A stretch of DNA of 43,586 bases, taken from positions 1-43,586 of the forward strand of contig DAVR01000019.1 of the NCBI GenBank assembly GCA_002507545.1, written 5' to 3'. The translations under genes and the position numbers were made by a program. Positions 2,753 to 10,143 of the stretch are shown piece after piece. This stretch comes from Archaeoglobus sp. UBA230. GTDB taxonomy: Archaea > Halobacteriota > Archaeoglobi > Archaeoglobales > Archaeoglobaceae. The notes beneath the pieces are model-generated. The model made no database searches, had not been told where the DNA came from, and was given only the letters and a program-made list of their open reading frames with translations. Numbering within the stretch: the first letter of the stretch is position 1; every line of letters begins with the position of its first letter.

Positions 2753-3471
2753 TCATTTCTTATGAAGCTTCTTATAATTTTCAACATTAATAATCCAAGC
2801 TCATACATGACTACAAATAAGGCAAGACTTGCAAACTGGGTTAATCCGGTGAAATCCATGGTCAGGTTTGTAACCAGCAGAAGAATGACGATGTAAACGG
2901 GAATCCTGAAGCTTCTGAAGGTATCGTAGTCAACGATTTTGAAGCGATCTGCAAGAACCATTGCAAGAGGAATCTGGAAGAAAATTCCAAAGGTGAGGAG
3001 GAGTTTAAAGGCATTGGTTATCGTTCTTTCCGCCGACAGATAGGGCTCGATCGAACTGCTTAGGGCAATCTTATACAGAAACGGAACGGCAAACTCGTAG
3101 GCGAATAAGAGGCCGAGAATGAAAATCAGGTAACTCGGTATCAGAATAGACCTCAGGAATTTTCTTTCATGTTCGTAAAGTCCGGGTTTGGCGAAAAGGT
3201 AAAACTCGTAGATTATGTAAGGATAGAGGATGATGAGGGAGAGCAGGGCTGAGAAAGTTAGCCTTATCACAACCCACTCGATGGGGGTGAAGATGTAAAG
3301 GTGTTTGTCTCCAACGAGATTATACCAGAAATTCAAAAGGAAACTGTAAGAAACGTAAAACATTACAGAAATTAAAGAGACAAATACGATGCTGATCCTG
3401 AGAACCCTTTTTCTCAACTCAGCTATATGCTCTGTTATCTCAAGTTCTCTATCTTCAGGTGGGTTAGTCAC
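2749..3471 (-). CDS. tatC: Twin-arginine translocase subunit TatC
   Basis: TatC is the substrate-receptor membrane subunit of the twin-arginine pathway, which exports folded proteins. The protein has the conserved N-terminal HIAELRKR segment (HxxELRxR), a loop FAKPGLYEHER matching the family's F-x-x-PGL-x-x-x-E signature, and about six hydrophobic segments. The start is uncertain. TTG at 3495 gives 248 aa, but a TATA-like TTATTTGA is centred at 3495.5, which is 24-25 bp before GTG 3471 and would make TTG 3495 part of the promoter, so GTG 3471 (240 aa) is preferred. No tatA is present nearby. Confidence 0.9.
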   Translation of the reverse strand: MTNPPEDRELEITEHIAELRKRVLRISIVFVSLISVMFYVSYSFLLNFWYNLVGDKHLYIFTPIEWVVIRLTFSALLSLIILYPYIIYEFYLFAKPGLYEHERKFLRSILIPSYLIFILGLLFAYEFAVPFLYKIALSSSIEPYLSAERTITNAFKLLLTFGIFFQIPLAMVLADRFKIVDYDTFRSFRIPVYIVILLLVTNLTMDFTGLTQFASLALFVVMYELGLLMLKIIRSFIRND

Positions 3472-3495
3472 GGTAACATGTGGATGCCTTATCAA

Positions 3496-3794
3496 ATAAG
3501 CTTAATTGGTGTGTGGGGTATATGGGTTTGTTAACCCCCAAATAGCTGGTCACTCCAGATTGTAGCGATCAAACAGCAACTAACTACAGTTCTTCACAAA
3601 GTGATGATGGATAATAACATTTACAACTAATAATATTAACAAATAAAATACAAAAGGCATAGTTAACTTTCGTTTGTATACCAAATCCCTCAGATTTTAG
3701 TTAAATTGCGTTTGGTGAGTGAAACAAAACTTAGAGAACCAAATACAATTTAACGTCAGACACAAAATACAATACCGGTACAGTTGCAAGACAA
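3496..3794. other. Gene-free AT-rich stretch between tatC and transposase remnant
   Basis: No coding region is supported here. It holds a small hairpin near 3524-3540 (GGGTT and AACCC around a short loop), a longer imperfect inverted repeat at 3701-3753 (listed separately) and otherwise AT-rich sequence. It probably includes the remnant end of the insertion sequence whose transposase fragment follows. Confidence 0.5.
3701..3753. repeat. Imperfect 16-bp inverted repeat with 21-bp spacer
   Basis: The left arm TTAAATTGCGTTTGGT (3701-3716) and right arm ACCAAATACAATTTAA (3738-3753) match at 14 of 16 positions as reverse complements. It lies about 40 bp beyond the 3' end of the transposase fragment. 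It could be a terminal structure of the dead element, a MITE-like relic or an operator. The sequence alone does not decide. Confidence 0.6.
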
Positions 3795-4265
3795 TCAAAG
3801 CTTGTTAGCCAGCACAAAAACAAGGAAAGTTTGAACTTCAATGAACGGACTAACAAAAACATCAAAGAAATTAATAAATCTGTATAACAAGTTCAGAAGA
3901 ACCCAAGCGTTGTAAAGCAATACAGAAAAACAGAACATGAAAAACCTGACCACATACTTTCTCGAACAAGTTTTCAATCTTAATTCACTCTTTACTCTAT
4001 AAGATGTCTCAATTCCCCACCTCTTTCTGTATTTTTCCGCTATAATGGATTCGTAGTAGTAAGGATGGTTGGAGGCGAAGACAATCTTTTGTCCGTCCTC
4101 CGCCTCTACAATGAATAAGTTGAAGTGAGCAACTCTGCCATCCTTGGTACTTCCCATTCTATATCTGACAATAGTGGGAGCATCGTACTCCTTCATCAAC
4201 TTCTTAACCCTTGGATTCTTTATCGCTGGCATTACGAATTTCATTCCGAGCTCTTTTGCTCGCAA
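3795..4265 (-). pseudogene. C-terminal fragment of an IS4/ISH3-type DDE transposase
   Basis: About 156 residues of a transposase C-terminus are present: a beta-rich segment, then [18 protein letters not shown], which matches the Y-x2-R-x3-E-x6-K (YREK) signature around the last acidic catalytic residue of IS4-type transposases, then hydrophobic helices. The N-terminal catalytic domain with the first two aspartates is missing: upstream the frame runs antisense into another gene, and no proper start or SD is seen (the first usable codon is TTG). The element is dead and probably lost its left part when the neighbouring island formed. Exact IS family needs a database comparison. Confidence 0.8.
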
Positions 4266-4321
4266 GACTCTTCCAGAAATTTGGAGGAAAAATAAATGTT
4301 TACTATATTTCAGATGTTATA

Positions 4322-4549
4322 ATGGCATCAGATATCCCAAGGAAGTACTACCACTTCGTAGAAAGAGCATTCAACAAAGGAGATTTCAGGCATTCAAGGT
4401 GGCTTTCTTTCAATGCAACAGATTACTCGGATGTATGGGAAATACTGGGCTATTCCTACATTGACTTGGAAGGAAAAACCAATGGGGAGCTTTGGAATGA
4501 GGTGCGGAAAGCTGAAAAGAAGGTTAAATTTGGTTTTGGAGGTGTTTAG
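4322..4549 (+). CDS. Unknown 75-aa protein translationally coupled to the SMC-like ATPase
   Basis: I do not recognise this family. The 75-residue protein is polar and aromatic-rich with several Trp and Tyr (for example RHSRWLSF and DVWEILGYSYIDLEG) and a basic C-terminus. It ends TAG immediately before the ATG of the SMC-like ATPase, and its last codons contain that gene's SD (GGAGGTG), so the two are co-translated. ATG 4322 has no SD but AT-rich TATA-like sequence at about 4290-4298. The same frame stays open back to 4211, so it could be the C-terminal part of a longer protein cut by the transposon. In haloarchaea the Sph3-type ATPase is paired with RdfA. Whether this is an equivalent partner is only a guess. 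Confidence 0.5.
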   Translation: MASDIPRKYYHFVERAFNKGDFRHSRWLSFNATDYSDVWEILGYSYIDLEGKTNGELWNEVRKAEKKVKFGFGGV

Positions 4550-6373
4550 ATGTATATAAAAATGGAAAATATTGGAGGGTTGGAAAGTTTTGAAGCAAAG
4601 ATAGAACCAAACAAAGTGACATACATCATAGCACCGAATACGGCTGGTAAAACAAGCTTTGTCAGGGGTTTACAGGCTGTTTTTGCAGAAGTGAATCCAA
4701 GAGAAGTAATCAACATCTCGAAAACAAAGGCGAGGATAGTCGTAAGTGATAACGGGAAAGTATCTGACCTCACTTTCCAGAAAACACCAACAGGGGTAGA
4801 AGTGGAAGGAATGTATCCAGACATCAGAGACCCCAGAGCTTCTTTAATCTCGTTCATCCTTCCAGATTCTAAGGTGGTTCAAGACATAATCCTGAAAGAC
4901 GGGGATTTGAGAGATTTTCTCAGCAGAATAAGCAAGGCTGACGAATACAAAAAGCTCAGGGATGAAGTGAAGAAGAAGCTCACAGAGAGAAAAGAGATGC
5001 TTGAAGTCTTGAGGAAGAGTGCAAAAGAAGTCCCAAAACTAAGAGAGATAAAATCTAAGCTTGAAGGAGAGATTAGCGAACTCAGAAAGAGGCTTGAAGA
5101 GGCAACTGTTTCAGATGAGGCAAAGGAGTTACAGGCACAGTTAAATAAGCTAATTGCTGAGAGGGATGCAATCGAGAGCGACATAATTGAGAAACAGAGG
5201 GAGAAAGAATTCCAGCTTGGCAAAATTGACACTCTGCAAGCAGAGATAGAGGAGCTCCAGAACAAGATAAAACAGCTTGAAAAGGAAATTCCTGAGCTCA
5301 AATTTGAACCTATTATTGAGAGGCTGCAAAAGAGGGCAGATGAAGTCAGAGAAAAAATAGCCCACGAAGTCAGACCTGAATTGAACAAAACCCAGGCTGA
5401 CGTCTCAAAACTTACTAAAGAGCTCGAAAAGATAACTAAAGGAGAGGAAAGAGCCGGTTATTGTCCCTTCGATAAGCAAGCTTGTAGTAGGTTTACTAAG
5501 GAAGTTCTGGAGACTATTCTGGAGGGAGACAAAAAGAGGCTTGAAAACCTCAAAGCATGGTATGAGGAGCTAAACAAGGAGTATAAGAAATATACAGACG
5601 AGATAAGAAAGCTCAAAGCGAAGCAGAACGAGATTGTCGAAATTAACAGACAGATTTCTCAGAAAATCAAAAACATCCGTGAGATAGAAGACAAAATAGA
5701 CAGAATTGACAATGAAATCAGAAACCTGGAAAATGAGAAGGAATTAAAGAATGAAGACATTAAAGCATTGGAGGACAAGATAAAAGAACTTGTAACGGAC
5801 AAAGACCAGAAGAGAGCTAAAATAGAGGCTGAAATTGCGGAGAAGACCAGACAAGTGAAAGAGATTGAGAGAAGGATTGCAGAGATAAGTAAGCAGTTCG
5901 ACCCAGAAAAATCCGTTACCGAACTTGAAGAAGAATGGATGAGAGAAATTGAGGAGCTTGAGAAAAAGTACAAGGAATATAGTGAGATTTATGAAAGACA
6001 GCTATATGGTGAGGCTAAGGAGTTCAATAAAAGAGTAAATGAATTTCTGAAAATCCTTGGATTCGATAAGAACTTCCACAGGGTTTTAATAGACCCAAAC
6101 ACTCAGAAACTGGTTGTTTATAAAACCCCCACTGAAAGCCAGCCATTGAACACTTTATCTACAAGCGAGAGATATGCTCTTGCAATTTTGATAATGCTGA
6201 TTGCCAGAGAGATATATATTCCAGAGTTCCCTTTGATTGTCTTAGACGAGGTCTTAATCTCCTTTGATGAGGAAAGAGGAAGAAAAGTCCTTGAATACAT
6301 TAGAAAAGAGGTTCCATACGTAATCACAACAGCACTGAAAGATAGCGGAGGTATAGAAGTAAAATCAATATAA
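4550..6373 (+). CDS. SMC/Rad50-like coiled-coil ATPase (archaea-specific SMC-related protein, Sph3-like)
   Basis: The 607-aa protein has an ABC-type head split by a long coiled coil. The Walker A motif is APNTAGKTS at 28-36, coiled coil runs from about 130 to 480, a cysteine pair in YCPFDKQAC (Cys305 and Cys312) sits at the middle like a zinc hook or hinge, the ABC signature is LSTSER (about 536-541) and Walker B is LIVLDEVLISFD (about 562-573). It is shorter than SMC (about 1150 aa) and lacks the Mre11-partnered Rad50 context. It fits the archaea-specific SMC-related group that includes haloarchaeal Sph3. It probably acts on DNA or the envelope-shape machinery with the preceding small protein. 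SD GGAGGTG lies 5 nt before ATG 4550. Confidence 0.85.
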   Translation: MYIKMENIGGLESFEAKIEPNKVTYIIAPNTAGKTSFVRGLQAVFAEVNPREVINISKTKARIVVSDNGKVSDLTFQKTPTGVEVEGMYPDIRDPRASLISFILPDSKVVQDIILKDGDLRDFLSRISKADEYKKLRDEVKKKLTERKEMLEVLRKSAKEVPKLREIKSKLEGEISELRKRLEEATVSDEAKELQAQLNKLIAERDAIESDIIEKQREKEFQLGKIDTLQAEIEELQNKIKQLEKEIPELKFEPIIERLQKRADEVREKIAHEVRPELNKTQADVSKLTKELEKITKGEERAGYCPFDKQACSRFTKEVLETILEGDKKRLENLKAWYEELNKEYKKYTDEIRKLKAKQNEIVEINRQISQKIKNIREIEDKIDRIDNEIRNLENEKELKNEDIKALEDKIKELVTDKDQKRAKIEAEIAEKTRQVKEIERRIAEISKQFDPEKSVTELEEEWMREIEELEKKYKEYSEIYERQLYGEAKEFNKRVNEFLKILGFDKNFHRVLIDPNTQKLVVYKTPTESQPLNTLSTSERYALAILIMLIAREIYIPEFPLIVLDEVLISFDEERGRKVLEYIRKEVPYVITTALKDSGGIEVKSI

Positions 6374-6405
6374 AAATATTAATATTTAGTTTTTTAAATT
6401 TTTAA
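6374..6405. terminator. Palindrome plus T-runs between convergent genes
   Basis: A perfect 14-bp palindrome AAATATTAATATTT (6374-6387) is followed by a T6 run and a second T5 run. It lies just after the ATPase stop codon and just before the end of the opposing phosphoribosyltransferase gene, so it probably terminates transcription from both sides. Confidence 0.5.
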
Positions 6406-6406
6406 T

Positions 6407-7120
6407 TTATCCAATAGACTCCCAATCTCGCCTACAAGTTCCAGAATTTGCCCAATAGGTTATTGTTCCTTTGGCTGGGTAGAAGTACCTTTTAAATTTG
6501 GATTTATCACTAATGGTTTGCATTGCTGCAAATGCTTTTATCTCAACATCTGGATATACCTCTTTAAGTCGCCAAGCTGCACCCATAAACGTGTGACCTC
6601 TAGTCACGATATCATCGACAAATACTACATACCCTATTTCTAAATCTACCATTTTGTTAATTCCCATGCTATTGTAGTGGTCTACAGGTTTTGGTCTCTG
6701 GCTTGGTGGAGCATATGATGACTTTTGAATGGCCACCATTCGTTGGATTAATGGCACAACAACTCCAAGTTTTTTGTTTTCCATCGCTTTTGCTATCTGA
6801 TATGGTGGCCAAAGCTGTCCTTTTTTAATTGGTGTTGATCTAGGCATGGGAACTAAAATCGTATCTTCTTGGAAAAAATCTGCGAAATATCCTTCATCGA
6901 CTAAACTTTTCAATCGTTCTGCAACATAATATGCCATAGACATTTCTTTTTCAACCGTTATCACTTTTCCCTCTCTAAGTACTGGTTTTTTTACTTTTAT
7001 AATAGTATCATATTTTATCCAATCCCTTACTTTCTTCGCAAACACACCTTCTTTAGAATTATCTCTAGGACAGTAGGAGAATATTGAGCAGAATGCGAGT
7101 TTATCTAACATTTTTTGCAT
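6407..7120 (-). CDS. ComF-like phosphoribosyltransferase-fold protein
   Basis: The 237-aa protein carries a type I phosphoribosyltransferase PRPP-binding loop, VVFVDDIVTRGHT at residues 165-177 (two acidic residues followed by T-R-G-x-T), and a LVPMPRS segment near 89-95 like ComF family members. An extra N-terminal region of about 80 residues carries Cys11 and Cys17. PRTase-fold proteins transfer or cleave phosphoribosyl groups on nucleotides, but the substrate here is unknown. It starts 11 bp after the dprA-like gene, so the two form one operon. ComF and DprA are both linked to DNA uptake in bacteria, but a competence role in this archaeon is not shown. A nucleotide-based defence or DNA-processing role is possible. 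Confidence 0.8.
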   Translation of the reverse strand: MQKMLDKLAFCSIFSYCPRDNSKEGVFAKKVRDWIKYDTIIKVKKPVLREGKVITVEKEMSMAYYVAERLKSLVDEGYFADFFQEDTILVPMPRSTPIKKGQLWPPYQIAKAMENKKLGVVVPLIQRMVAIQKSSYAPPSQRPKPVDHYNSMGINKMVDLEIGYVVFVDDIVTRGHTFMGAAWRLKEVYPDVEIKAFAAMQTISDKSKFKRYFYPAKGTITYWANSGTCRRDWESIG

Positions 7121-7131
7121 CCATAAATCCC

Positions 7132-7872
7132 CTACTGAAAACTACTAATGTCTACTACTTTTAACTCAGATATTGGGAATTCTGTTGGTGGCGGCATCAT
7201 CTCTCTGATGGCACGTTTCAAATCATTGACATTTTTTAAAACACAAGCACCATACTTCATCATTTCCTTGACCCATTCAAAATCCTTCTCTACAAGCGAT
7301 TTCCAGAAAAAGAGGGGTCTACCAAGTCTTAAGGTTTCCCAACCCTGAGAAATTACCCCGCTACTTTCTCCTGCCTCAACAATAATACTTGCATTGGAGA
7401 TTAACGCCATCGTTCGATTTCTAAGAACAAAGTGTTTTGGTTTAGTAATATGTCCTATAGGATACTGACTAATTGCTAAATGCTCTTTCATAATTAGCTC
7501 TTGTAAAGGTCTATTTTCGGCAGGATAAAATTTGTTTAGAGGGGTTCCTAACACCGCAATAGTCTTTCCTCCATGTTCTATTGCCGTTTTGTGTGCAATC
7601 GTGTCAATTCCCTTTGCAAGACCGCTTAACACTATAACTTTGTTATCGATAAGTACTTTCGTTATTTTTAATGCAGCTTTGATCCCCTCAGATGATGGTT
7701 TTCTTGTTCCAATTACAGCCACCCGTGGCTCTGGTAGCGGTGTTCTCATTGAACCAGCAATGTAAAGTATTTTTGGAGCATATTTCTTCTCGAACTCATT
7801 TAACTTTCGACCCAAAAGCTCCTCAGGAGTGATTTTTCTTATGTTTGCCCCCCATACTTTGTGTAAATTCAT
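7132..7872 (-). CDS. DprA/Smf-like Rossmann-fold (SLOG) protein
   Basis: The 246-aa protein has the ordered DprA core motifs: VAVIGTRKPS (51-60), SGLAKGIDTIAHK (83-95), GGKTIAVLGTPLNKFYP (101-117) and RNRTMALIS...EAGESSG (151-172). Bacterial DprA loads RecA on incoming single-stranded DNA. The fold is also used in SLOG nucleotide-sensing proteins. This version is short: it lacks the N-terminal SAM-like and C-terminal winged-helix domains of many DprA proteins. ATG 7872 has the SD GAGGGAT about 6 nt upstream. It is the first gene of an operon with the PRTase-like gene, and the winged-helix regulator gene lies just upstream on the same strand. Confidence 0.85.
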   Translation of the reverse strand: MNLHKVWGANIRKITPEELLGRKLNEFEKKYAPKILYIAGSMRTPLPEPRVAVIGTRKPSSEGIKAALKITKVLIDNKVIVLSGLAKGIDTIAHKTAIEHGGKTIAVLGTPLNKFYPAENRPLQELIMKEHLAISQYPIGHITKPKHFVLRNRTMALISNASIIVEAGESSGVISQGWETLRLGRPLFFWKSLVEKDFEWVKEMMKYGACVLKNVNDLKRAIREMMPPPTEFPISELKVVDISSFQ

Positions 7873-7908
7873 ATTAATCCCTCACAATATTCTTTCTCAT
7901 ATCTTCCC

Positions 7909-7917
7909 TATAAATTT
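7909..7917 (-). promoter_or_regulatory. TATA box for the dprA-PRTase operon
   Basis: The minus-strand box AAATTTATA is centred at 7913 with a purine-rich BRE-like GAAAAG just upstream. Transcription would start near 7888, leaving a leader of about 15 nt that contains the SD of the dprA-like gene. The operon can thus be transcribed separately from the regulator gene upstream. Confidence 0.5.
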
Positions 7918-7926
7918 CTTTTCAAT

Positions 7927-8409
7927 TTACACACTTTCCAACGGTTCACATACCTCAGCTTTTACTCCTTTAAAAGTTCTTTTTTCAATTTCAATTTCTC
8001 TATAAGGTGCGACATCTTTTCCGCTCTTTATTTCAGCATACACAGGACAATCTTTCTTGAATGGACAAACTTGCTCGCAGAACTCTCTTCGCATCCTAAT
8101 CTTCAACTTGACCTTGATGACTAAATTGTCTTCATCAACACTTTCAACCTCCGGGATTATTGTCATCAACCACTTCTCCGAAATTGCCCCACCTACTTTC
8201 TTGGTTCCAACTACTGCAACAAGACCCTTTTCTGCTCCCCATCGAATATACTTTCTAACAGTAACGTATGGCATCCCCGTAGCATTAGCAATCTCTCGTA
8301 TGGTTTTAGGTTCATCCACGATCTCCCTAAAGACGTAAATCTTGTCCGTAAACATCATTTCGCCAATTGCCTCGTAAACTTCATCCCAGAACTCTTCCAA
8401 TTCAATCAC
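7927..8409 (-). CDS. Winged-helix DNA-binding protein with four-cysteine C-terminal motif
   Basis: The 160-aa protein has an N-terminal winged helix-turn-helix of ArsR/MarR-like form (residues about 20-65: DEPKTIREIA then TVRKYIRWGAEKGLVAV) and a C-terminal region with Cys111, Cys115, Cys121 and Cys154 (CEQVCPFKKDC motif). The cysteines could hold an iron-sulfur cluster or zinc, making this a possible redox- or metal-sensing regulator. The start is GTG 8409, since ATG 8415 is out of frame. The gene is divergent from the 314-aa gene and upstream of the dprA-like gene on the same strand, so it is the likely regulator of the module. Confidence 0.72.
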   Translation of the reverse strand: MIELEEFWDEVYEAIGEMMFTDKIYVFREIVDEPKTIREIANATGMPYVTVRKYIRWGAEKGLVAVVGTKKVGGAISEKWLMTIIPEVESVDEDNLVIKVKLKIRMRREFCEQVCPFKKDCPVYAEIKSGKDVAPYREIEIEKRTFKGVKAEVCEPLESV

Positions 8410-8420
8410 CTCATCGTAAG

Positions 8421-8456
8421 TTATATATGTATAGACGTTTTAAGTTAGTGTATAGA
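8421..8456. promoter_or_regulatory. Divergent promoter with TGTATAGA direct repeat
   Basis: Only 46 bp separate GTG 8409 (minus) and ATG 8456 (plus). The AT-rich core TTATATATGTATAG (8421-8434) is the only TATA-like sequence and lies near the middle, so it probably serves both genes. TGTATAGA occurs at 8428-8435 and again at 8449-8456, 21 bp apart (two helical turns), which suggests an operator for a dimeric regulator such as the adjacent winged-helix protein. Confidence 0.5.
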
Positions 8457-9400
8457 TGAGACACTCGGATAGAATTCAAGAAACACTTGTTCATGAATTG
8501 TGTGGGGTGTTTGATTTAGATATCGCCAGCGAAGATGATGATATTTTGATTGAGGCTCTTAAGCGCACTCTTGGAGACGAAGTTGAGCGATTAAAGCTTG
8601 ATCTGAACGAACTTGTTAGGAAACTCAAGAAAGAGTACTACAACTCATTAAAGAAGAGATTCAGAGAGAGTTTAGCTGAAGTCAGAGCAGAGTTAAGAGG
8701 ATCAATCACTAAGAAACAGTTTATGTATCTTGCAGCTACAGTTTTCGCAGAATCTATACTAAATAAGCCCGTTCCAGCATCTCTTGTTTTTGAAATTTTG
8801 AGGTGTATAGGTATGGAAGATAGAAAAAATTATCCTAACAGATATTATTTTCTGAGACAACTTGAGGAAAAAGGGCTCGTGAAGAGTATAACGGTCGTAA
8901 ATTCGAGAGCTGATAGATTGTATTGTTCAGAAGACGAAGGCAAAAAAATAGTAGATGGTTCCAAAGAGTTTGAGAAGTTAATTGAGTTAAAAGAGAGAAT
9001 ATTAAATGATGCAAAAATCAAACACCTTATTAGAACTTACTCTTCAGAAGAACCAAAAATGGACGTTGGTTTACCGAAACTACTTGAAACTAGTCAAGTA
9101 ATAAGTGAAAAAGAAGACAATGTTAAAGTTTTGTTGTACGGTAGAGAAATAGTAAACATAAGCCAAGATGAAATTAACGAGATTGGCAGGATTGTTAGAG
9201 AATGCGGAAGATTTACACAATCAGATTTAAGAAAAGCATATAGGTTCGAGAAAAAAGCTATGGCTTATGTAGTATACGCATATGCGAAAGGATGGATTAG
9301 AATGGCTGAGAAAGGTAGAAGGAACTCACTGATTTTTGAAGTGGCACCTCACGAACTGAAGATAAACAATTCGAAAAGTCTTGAAACTGAAACCACATGA
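8456..9400 (+). CDS. Unknown 314-aa protein with two winged-helix-like regions
   Basis: I do not recognise this protein. It has a helical, charged N-terminus (residues 1-85, with NELVRKLKKEYYNSLKKRF-type helix), a middle region resembling a winged helix (about 105-145: PVPASLVFEIL, then FLRQLEEKGLVKSI) and a C-terminal second winged-helix-like region (about 245-300: GRFTQSDLRKAYRFEKKAMA, then KGWIRM and a beta wing). It has no signal peptide or membrane segment. ATG 8456 lacks an SD and fits a leaderless start. It may bind DNA. Its divergent promoter links it to the four-cysteine regulator and the dprA-PRTase operon. Confidence 0.7.
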   Translation: MRHSDRIQETLVHELCGVFDLDIASEDDDILIEALKRTLGDEVERLKLDLNELVRKLKKEYYNSLKKRFRESLAEVRAELRGSITKKQFMYLAATVFAESILNKPVPASLVFEILRCIGMEDRKNYPNRYYFLRQLEEKGLVKSITVVNSRADRLYCSEDEGKKIVDGSKEFEKLIELKERILNDAKIKHLIRTYSSEEPKMDVGLPKLLETSQVISEKEDNVKVLLYGREIVNISQDEINEIGRIVRECGRFTQSDLRKAYRFEKKAMAYVVYAYAKGWIRMAEKGRRNSLIFEVAPHELKINNSKSLETETT

Positions 9401-9449
9401 AGATATTAATAGAAATAGAAAAAGATACTTTTACCACATCCAAAGGTAG

Positions 9450-9599
9450 CTAGATTTAGAGAAACTTGTGTAGAACCGCAAGGTTTGGTTTTTAGCTGCT
9501 ATATTCAGATTGGAGTTGCTTTGGGTATACAATGAAGAAGATTTTGAAGAGTTCTTGAACTGGTTTAACTTTTGGAGTGAACAAAAAGAGAAGTTGTGA
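9450..9599 (+). pseudogene. Decayed coding fragment with an in-frame stop
   Basis: One frame reads LDLEKLV, then TAG at 9471, then NRKVWFLAAIFRLELLWVYN and EEDFEEFLNWFNFWSEQKEKL before TGA at 9597. The residue make-up (amphipathic and aromatic-rich, ending in a lysine-rich tail) looks like a real protein C-terminus, but there is no start codon or SD and one internal stop. It may be the tail of a lost transposase or island gene. The family was not recognised. Confidence 0.35.
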
Positions 9600-9638
9600 A
9601 ATAAACAAACAAAAATTAACAAAACATTTAAAATCAAG

Positions 9639-9702
9639 CGATATTTAACAGTTCACCCATCAAAAGTTAACAAAATTCAAGACAAGACAACACTAAATAT
9701 CG
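9639..9702. repeat. Short inverted repeat
   Basis: CGATATTTA at 9639-9647 and its exact reverse complement TAAATATCG at 9694-9702 flank 46 bp of AT-rich sequence. With such AT content chance is a real possibility. Confidence 0.3.
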
Positions 9703-9787
9703 ATTAAATCAAGTAATACTCAATCTCCGAACTTATTTACTTTGTGAACTACTGAATTAACCGCTAACTTTATAAATGAGTTCAGCG

Positions 9788-9822
9788 AAAAATATATATA
9801 CTCTTGCGAAAACCTTATATAC
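9788..9822 (+). promoter_or_regulatory. gar1 promoter with two TATA boxes
   Basis: Two TATA-like elements precede ATG 9826: AAAAATATATATAC (9788-9801), centred about 30 bp upstream and suitable for a nearly leaderless gar1 mRNA, and CTTATATAC (9814-9822), which would start transcripts inside gar1 and could drive tfb. Both have A-rich BRE-like sequence before them (GCGAAAA). Confidence 0.5.
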
Positions 9823-9825
9823 TGC

Positions 9826-10143
9826 ATGAAAAAGCTCAGGGCACTTGGGAAAGTAAAGCACATGTCGAAATCTGGGATGCTTGTAGTTGCTTTAAATCCT
9901 GCACATCTCCCCAAAATCGGGAATAAGATTGTTACAAGAAAAATGGAATATGTTGGCACTATCAATGATATAATAGGCCCGGTTTCATCGCCCTATGCAC
10001 TCGTCAGACCAAAAAACCCTGAGAAAATAGTATTTGAAGATTTATTTGTGGTGAAAGAGTATGGCGGAGGTAGAAAAGGTAAGGGAGAAGGAAGTAGAAA
10101 AGGAAGTAGAAAGAAAGGAGATAGAAAGAGAAGAGGATATTGA
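9826..10143 (+). CDS. gar1: H/ACA ribonucleoprotein subunit Gar1
   Basis: The 105-aa protein has the Gar1/Naf1 beta-barrel: a segment [20 protein letters not shown] followed by LVRPK matches the family core (GxVxDIxGPVxxPY). Gar1 is a subunit of the H/ACA snoRNP that makes pseudouridine in rRNA with Cbf5, Nop10 and L7Ae. The C-terminus is a basic Gly/Lys/Arg-rich tail typical of Gar1. The last 83 bp overlap the start of tfb in a different frame. The two form an operon, as in other archaea I recall. Confidence 0.92.

What the first reader, a model, noticed from the sequence alone, without database searches (positions are those of the whole stretch)
6407..9400. DprA-PRTase operon with Cys-rich winged-helix regulator and divergent unknown partner: candidate undescribed system
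A DprA/SLOG protein stripped of accessory domains is paired with a ComF-like PRTase 11 bp downstream. They follow, on the same strand, a winged-helix protein with four cysteines that is divergent from a 314-aa protein with two winged-helix-like regions. SLOG and PRTase folds both bind nucleotides or ADP-ribose-like ligands, and pairs of this kind have been suggested in comparative genomics as nucleotide-based conflict or defence modules (from memory, not checked). The module sits beside a transposon remnant in AT-rich DNA.
Basis: partly seen in the sequence, partly recalled or inferred. Interest (0 to 1): 0.75.

Follow-up and report, generated by a model that had tools for sequence, protein, structure and literature searches.

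The report
Archaeal copy of ShosTA toxin-antitoxin defence
A pair of genes in an archaeon, flagged as a possible new defence system, is a compact version of a toxin-antitoxin pair already reported to protect bacteria against viruses, and the two regulator genes beside it belong to something else.

Summary
The four genes exist as described but form two separate units. The DprA-like gene (7132-7872, -) and the phosphoribosyltransferase gene 11 bp downstream (6407-7120, -) match the known ShosA/ShosT toxin-antitoxin and anti-phage pair (PADLOC ShosA 8.5e-73, ShosT 7.5e-26). Homologous pairs lie in archaeal genomes and on bacterial plasmids and phages. In Archaeoglobales a ShosA match is patchy: 9 of 57 genomes, 0 of 7 others of the genus. 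DNA similarity to a relative from another genus covers the two genes and almost nothing more (6401-7873). Both genes look constrained (dN/dS 0.07-0.22) and keep their PRPP-loop and DprA Rossmann motifs. The Cys-rich winged-helix gene and the divergent 314-aa gene recur together in one other genome, with no ShosTA beside them, next to an SMC-related gene; their shared promoter has 21-bp-spaced repeats, suggesting a self-regulated pair. Most likely mechanism: ShosT is a nucleotide-metabolism toxin restrained by DNA-binding ShosA and released on infection, inferred from bacterial work, not shown here. ShosA lacks the N-terminal domain of the solved bacterial ShosA; short plasmid-borne versions lack it too. 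New member of a known kind.

The parts
7132..7872 (-). shosA-like gene: compact DprA/SLOG Rossmann protein (246 aa), putative antitoxin/sensor
   Evidence: PADLOC ShosA PDLC03961 8.5e-73, profile positions 95-294 of 303; Pfam DNA_processg_A 3.1e-48; 85% identical to the G024 copy; dN/dS 0.07 and 0.14
6407..7120 (-). shosT-like gene: phosphoribosyltransferase (237 aa), putative toxin/effector
   Evidence: PADLOC ShosT PDLC03962 7.5e-26; PRPP loop VDDIVTRGHT intact, 13 columns invariant in 8 sequences; dN/dS 0.18 and 0.22
7873..7926 (-). 54-bp leader of shosTA with TATA-like TTTATA (7909-7914) and GAGGG ahead of the shosA ATG, possibly its own promoter
   Evidence: read by eye from the sequence; not tested by any promoter model; G213 has GTTTATAG at a similar distance
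7927..8409 (-). Cys4 winged-helix regulator (160 aa); separate unit, not part of ShosTA
   Evidence: 66% identical to L019:8337-8849, all 4 Cys conserved; only weak wHTH matches (TrmB 0.025, Csa3 0.00015)
8410..8456 (.). divergent promoter with two TGTATAGA repeats at 8428 and 8449 (21-bp spacing), candidate operators
   Evidence: same spacing and position in L019 (8263, 8284; a third copy at 8328); 0 of 200,000 mononucleotide shuffles reproduce the shared spacing; motif chosen after looking, and its total number in window and L019 is not above chance
8456..9400 (+). 314-aa protein, probable winged-helix DNA-binding protein; divergent partner of the Cys4 regulator, not part of ShosTA
   Evidence: 50% identical to L019:7368-8261; no convincing family match
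4550..6373 (+). archaea-specific SMC-related protein (ASRP, 607 aa), converges on shosT; neighbour of the regulator pair also in L019
   Evidence: NCBIfam NF045487 1.3e-84 (284.9 bits, cut-off 300); one of 4 of 55 family genomes scoring above 280 bits
3795..4265 (-). ISH3-family transposase remnant (156 aa; the relative in L019 has 358)
   Evidence: 79% identical to the C-terminal part of L019:15481-16557

Best explanation
The dprA-PRTase pair is a ShosTA-type toxin-antitoxin and antiviral module in its compact form (ShosA without an N-terminal domain, gene order shosA-shosT), acquired horizontally by this Archaeoglobaceae genome. Shown here: homology, gene pairing, patchy distribution, intact motifs, signs of purifying selection, shared DNA whose edges nearly coincide with the two genes. 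Inferred from bacterial ShosTA: ShosT uses PRPP/nucleotides and, when free, unbalances purine metabolism and damages DNA; ShosA, a DNA-binding DprA-like protein, counteracts it; infection releases the toxin and the infected cell dies or stops growing. The Cys4 winged-helix and 314-aa genes are a separate divergent regulator pair with shared tandem operators, next to which ShosTA lies.
For: ShosA/ShosT profile matches. A PRTase ORF adjoins the ShosA-family ORF in 9 of 9 Archaeoglobales genomes with a match, though it is broken in two of them. In the wider phylum, 15 of 384 genomes have a ShosT-model match above 42 bits (a line I chose; the next scores 36.2), and in 15 of 15 a DprA-like ORF adjoins it, in two of them only as a short ORF. 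The 5 of 8 plasmid hits to ShosT and 3 of 33 phage hits to ShosA that I opened all have DprA followed by PRTase. DNA similarity to G024 runs 6401-7873, i.e. the two genes. dN/dS 0.07-0.22 (dS 0.9-1.2). The ShosA tree places the five archaeal copies of this class inside a 99/97 group with plasmid-borne proteins. No ShosA match in the 7 other genomes of the genus, three of which are under 90% complete. Literature: PMC9122126 and PMC12593503 (passages).
Against: Neither PADLOC model is specific at low scores: ShosA rings in 10 of 14 control genomes, ShosT in 13 of 14 and, at E <= 0.001, in 357 of 384 phylum genomes; the pairing and the height of the score decide. By phmmer the window ShosA scores higher against transformation DprA 3uqz (2.8e-30) than against ShosA 9vzo (8.3e-15), and it lacks the N-terminal part of 9vzo (match starts at residue 120 of 331), so its regulation may differ. 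Pairing has exceptions: a 91-aa ShosA fragment in G024 without PRTase, a Pseudosulfitobacter plasmid with a 50% identical ShosA but only a 111-aa PRTase-like ORF, and G193 with a 35-residue ShosT-like match and no ShosA. I saw no toxicity or antiviral test of an archaeal copy in the listings, most of whose papers I did not open. The TATA-like promoter is by eye only; co-transcription with the wHTH gene 54 bp upstream is not excluded.
Confidence: 0.87

Rival explanations
1. A four-gene system in which the Cys4 winged-helix protein senses a redox or iron signal and, with the 314-aa protein, controls shosTA from upstream.
For: The wHTH gene is collinear with shosA at 54 bp, so read-through is possible. 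Its four Cys are conserved.
Against: The four nearest ShosTA relatives lack both genes nearby (L020-L023). The only other wHTH/314-aa pair found has no ShosTA next to it (L019). The candidate operator is not found ahead of shosA. A TATA-like box and a GAGGG precede shosA (by eye).
Confidence: 0.07
2. An ordinary DNA-transformation DprA with a ComF-like partner (competence genes).
Against: No match in 48 of 57 genomes of the order, including the seven others of the genus. The PRTase resembles ShosT, and no ComF model was matched. Homologous pairs sit on plasmids and phages.
Confidence: 0.03
3. A decaying, inactive remnant of a mobile island.
For: AT-rich 6.2-kb stretch, without DNA similarity to the tatC- and TFB-side stretches fetched from five genomes of the genus, with an IS remnant in it. 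Broken copies exist in G282, G291 and at a second place in G024.
Against: Both window ORFs are full length, motifs intact, dN/dS 0.07-0.22.
Confidence: 0.04

Closest known systems
ShosTA toxin-antitoxin / anti-phage system (PADLOC ShosT PDLC03962, ShosA PDLC03961; PDB 9vzo ShosA)
   Same: DprA-like plus PRTase, adjacent on one strand; profile matches to both; patchy distribution; PRPP loop intact
   Different: ShosA lacks the roughly 90-residue N-terminal part of 9vzo and of the model (match starts at position 95 of 303); host is an archaeon; activity untested
DprA-PRTase system of the P2-phage hotspot (Rousset et al. 2022, PMC9122126, passages)
   Same: same two protein kinds; the Peduoviridae phage Mana carries DprA then PRTase in the same order
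   Different: phage ShosA proteins of Mana and Riah are longer (282 and 311 aa) and branch outside the compact archaeal/plasmid group
Plasmid-borne compact DprA-PRTase pairs (Allochromatium pALVIN01, Pseudosulfitobacter, Paracoccus, Sulfitobacter, Chryseobacterium)
   Same: short ShosA (223-232 aa), DprA first and PRTase next, overlapping; grouped with the window ShosA at 99/97
   Different: ShosT only 29-34% identical by tblastn; bacterial hosts
PsyrTA
   Same: DprA-like antitoxin (recalled); window ShosA also matches the PsyrA model at 2.5e-22
   Different: its toxin is a RecQ-like helicase (recalled), not a PRTase; the neighbour here is a PRTase

Membership tests
ShosTA | DprA-like antitoxin of the ShosA profile | tested here: met
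   8.5e-73, 243.3 bits, against 132.7 bits (cut-off 191.15) for the dprA equivalog; caveat: the ShosA model also rings in 10 of 14 control genomes
ShosTA | PRTase toxin of the ShosT profile | tested here: met
   7.5e-26; highest score among 384 phylum genomes (89.5 bits); caveat: weak matches are general, 13 of 14 controls and 357 of 384 genomes at E <= 0.001
ShosTA | the two genes adjacent on one strand as a conserved pair | tested here: met
   11-bp spacer; pairing in 9 of 9 Archaeoglobales genomes with a ShosA match, two with a broken PRTase, and in 8 of 8 further phylum genomes above 42 bits, two with short ShosA ORFs
ShosTA | PRPP-binding loop of an active PRTase | tested here: met
   D169 D170 T173 G175 invariant in 8 sequences; that these mark the PRPP loop is recalled
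ShosTA | accessory, horizontally spread rather than housekeeping | tested here: met
   9 of 57 order genomes; 0 of 7 other genomes of the genus
ShosTA | ShosT toxic, ShosA neutralises | not testable with these tools
   needs expression tests
ShosTA | protection against viruses | not testable with these tools
   reported for bacterial pairs (PMC9122126, PMC12593503, passages)
Architecture of the solved ShosA 9vzo (not a family-defining feature) | N-terminal domain before the Rossmann core | tested here: not met
   window residue 33 aligns with 9vzo residue 120
   in 384-392 phylum genomes no other genome with all four together was found
ASRP (archaea-specific SMC-related proteins), for the neighbour gene | NCBIfam NF045487 over its cut-off | tested here: inconclusive
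   284.9 bits against a cut-off of 300, residues 7-597 on profile 1-592; the model also rings weakly in 14 of 14 controls

The most novel reading that the evidence does not exclude
The Cys4 winged-helix / 314-aa pair with its conserved 21-bp tandem operators, beside an ASRP gene, is the control unit of an undescribed Archaeoglobales mobile element (or ASRP-based conflict system) that picks up defence cargo such as ShosTA; compact ShosA may in addition work without the N-terminal domain by a different switch.
Probability: 0.2. Interest if true: 0.55.

Novelty: new member of a known kind. Interest (0 to 1): 0.3.

Why it matters
It corrects a 'candidate undescribed system' to a known one and documents an intact, apparently selected, compact ShosTA in Archaeoglobaceae (a family recalled as heat-loving). 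A thermostable ShosT/ShosA pair without the extra domain would be a convenient minimal system for asking how a DprA-like protein restrains a PRTase toxin. It also separates out an unknown regulator pair with a candidate operator, which is directly testable.

Tried and rejected
Four-gene module: rejected on co-occurrence. Viral origin: IMG/VR scans with the 314-aa protein and with ShosA, single-sequence queries that reach close relatives only, gave none; ShosT gave none in annotated phages, though ShosA did. Plasmid relatives of the winged-helix and 314-aa proteins: none at E <= 0.01. The one genome-contig scan found only the genome already in hand. Structures of the 314-aa and 160-aa proteins: both models too poor to interpret (mean pLDDT 57.3 and 44.6), and Foldseek with the former had no E below 0.1. 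Clean insertion site: tatC and TFB, which flank the AT-rich stretch, are 207 kb apart in G112 and on different contigs in G267, G233, G087, G102 and G159 (G311 has no TFB match), so no empty site could be compared. In the stretches fetched from five of these (L054-L061), DNA similarity stops at 3478-3512 on the left and starts again at 9755-9786 on the right. Repeats flanking shosTA: none convincing. A 106-bp AT-rich match between 9646-9751 and the region upstream of the G213 ShosA was left unexplained. Rfam (gathering) and tRNA scans of the window: nothing. The first paper search matched a longer word and was useless. The primary paper on ShosTA mechanism (Pu et al. 2025) was not held, so its content is taken from a review.
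Full report
What is there. The four ORFs are as described: on the minus strand a 160-aa winged-helix protein, then after 54 bp a 246-aa DprA-like protein, then after 11 bp a 237-aa PRTase; divergent from them, after 46 bp, a 314-aa protein on the plus strand. To the left lie a 607-aa SMC-related ATPase gene (4550-6373, +) and an ISH3-family remnant (3795-4265). The 1-kb bins from 3001 to 10000 are 34-41% GC, against mostly 42-49% in the other bins. In the tatC- and TFB-side stretches fetched from five genomes of the genus, DNA similarity stops at 3478-3512 and restarts at 9755-9786. The family is Archaeoglobaceae: the match in the same-family genome G004 lies on a 47,545-base contig, the same length as JALWDS010000006.1, an Archaeoglobaceae MAG contig found with the same query family.

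What the pair is. The DprA-like protein matches PADLOC ShosA (8.5e-73) and the PRTase matches ShosT (7.5e-26). Neither model is specific by itself: ShosA rings in 10 of 14 control genomes, ShosT in 13 of 14 and in 357 of 384 phylum genomes at E <= 0.001, and a single-sequence search gives a better score to transformation DprA 3uqz than to the solved ShosA 9vzo. What identifies the system is the pairing together with the scores. In the order, 9 of 57 genomes have a ShosA-model match, and in all nine a PRTase ORF adjoins it, though in G282 and G291 the PRTase is broken; an extra 91-aa ShosA fragment in G024 has no PRTase nearby. With the ShosT model, 15 of 384 phylum genomes score above 42 bits (a line I chose; the next scores 36.2, and I did not inspect those below). 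Seven of the 15 are Archaeoglobales already seen, and the other eight all have a DprA-like ORF next door, in two (G307, G179) only a short one. Of the 8 genomes that matched the window ShosT in a sample of 392, seven have ShosA beside it, and G193, with a 35-residue match, does not. In bacteria, the five of eight plasmid hits to ShosT and three of 33 phage hits to ShosA that I opened all have DprA followed by PRTase. One more plasmid, opened among 146 ShosA hits, has a 50% identical ShosA with only a 111-aa PRTase-like ORF.

Two classes exist in Archaeoglobales: the window class (G000, G024, G213, G316, G282; shosA first, ShosA 242-250 aa), grouped at 99/97 with compact plasmid proteins; and a more distant class (G075, G248, G004, G291; shosT first). 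The tree has long branches (E. coli Smf; phage phiOH2 in the ShosT tree), so only the compact group is used here.

State of the window copy. Both ORFs are intact. Across eight ShosT sequences 13 columns are invariant, among them D169, D170, T173 and G175 of the PRPP loop (the meaning of the loop is recalled). In ten ShosA sequences the GxR, SGLAxGxD and RNR motifs are invariant; that such residues contact DNA in DprA is recalled. dN/dS against G024 and G213 is 0.07 and 0.14 for ShosA, 0.18 and 0.22 for ShosT, with dS 0.9-1.2. DNA similarity to G024 covers 6401-7873, ending one base beyond the shosA start codon. The 54-bp leader holds a TATA-like TTTATA and a GAGGG ahead of the ATG (read by eye).

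What the neighbours are. The 160-aa and 314-aa genes recur strongly in only one other genome of 384 and 392 searched: G004, 66% and 50% identical, with the same divergent layout and an ASRP gene on the same side. The other four hits (two for each protein, E 2e-4 to 1e-3) are to proteins with general winged-helix domains. G004 has no ShosTA there, only a pair of the distant class on its contig C1. The divergent promoter has TGTATAGA at 8428 and 8449, and L019 has TGCATAGA at 8263 and 8284 plus CGTATAGA at 8328, all read in the direction of the 314-aa gene. The total number of YGYATAGA matches is not above chance (5 in the window, 3.6 expected; 3 in L019, 2.2 expected); the notable point is that all three of L019 and two of five of the window fall in this short promoter with the same 21-bp spacing. 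None of 200,000 joint mononucleotide shuffles shows an equal feature, but the motif was chosen after looking and the two regions are homologous. I read this as an autoregulated divergent pair. The operator is not found ahead of shosA.

The ASRP neighbour. Matches above 280 bits to the ASRP model occur in 4 of 55 family genomes, one of them over the curated cut-off. In G004, G069 and G248 the gene follows a protein with a Cys-rich, zinc-ribbon-like start, an AAA+-like ATPase and a small protein (AAA confirmed for G004 and similar for G248). The window has the IS remnant where these would be, and an ORF at 4211-4549 with a weak similarity (3e-05 against two sequences) to the small protein of G248. 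Of the paper that defined ASRPs (PMC9389158) I saw the abstract and outline, and a term search for Archaeoglob, operon, neighbour, winged and plasmid found nothing.

Mechanism. From passages of PMC9122126: a DprA-PRTase pair from a P2-like phage protects against T7 and lambda, and DprA homologues act as antitoxins in shosTA and others. From a passage of the review PMC12593503 citing Pu et al. 2025, which is not held: ShosT acts as phosphoribosyltransferase and pyrophosphatase, disturbs purine metabolism and leads to DNA duplications, filamentation and death; ShosA binds DNA and counteracts it; phage T7 Gp0.7 is a trigger. I infer the same logic here. Shown: the parts, their pairing, constraint and patchiness. 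Inferred: toxicity, neutralisation, trigger. PMC11291487 (passages) reports ShosTA in Asgard archaea, where it is more frequent than in other prokaryotes, so its presence in archaea is not new.

Verdict. Known kind, new member, compact architecture; the four-gene 'candidate undescribed system' is not supported. The confidence was lowered by 0.01 on rechecking, because the ShosT model too is unspecific at low scores.

Noticed in passing
window 8410-8456; L019 8262-8336: Tandem TGYATAGA repeats with 21-bp spacing in the divergent promoter of the Cys4 winged-helix and 314-aa genes, conserved in both genomes found to carry them.
   Followed up: partly
window 4550-6373; L019 9844-13909; L092 7977-12049; L093 1406-5598: Rare ASRP gene block: Cys-rich-start protein, AAA+-like ATPase (IetA-like, 9.1e-16 in G004), small protein, ASRP (LmuB-like 1.4e-25 in G004). 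The window keeps ASRP, with an IS remnant where the others would be.
   Followed up: partly
L019 14021-15094; L092 12151-13224: A PAPS-reductase/4Fe-4S protein divergent from the ASRP block; the L019 copy is similar to BrxP (3.6e-48) and SspD (2.5e-21); possible defence link.
   Followed up: no
L107 3072-3347 (G024): A second, truncated ShosA copy (91 aa, 71% identical) in the genome that also has an intact ShosTA.
   Followed up: no
L020 4632-6552; L021 6357-7091: VapBC-like pair and a DUF1156 adenine methyltransferase ORF within 4 kb upstream of ShosTA in G024; in G213 a serine recombinase gene ends about 300 bp upstream of ShosA.
   Followed up: no
window 9646-9751; L021 7228-7324: AT-rich 106-bp stretch upstream of gar1 resembles (71%) the region just upstream of the G213 ShosA, opposite strand.
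   Followed up: partly
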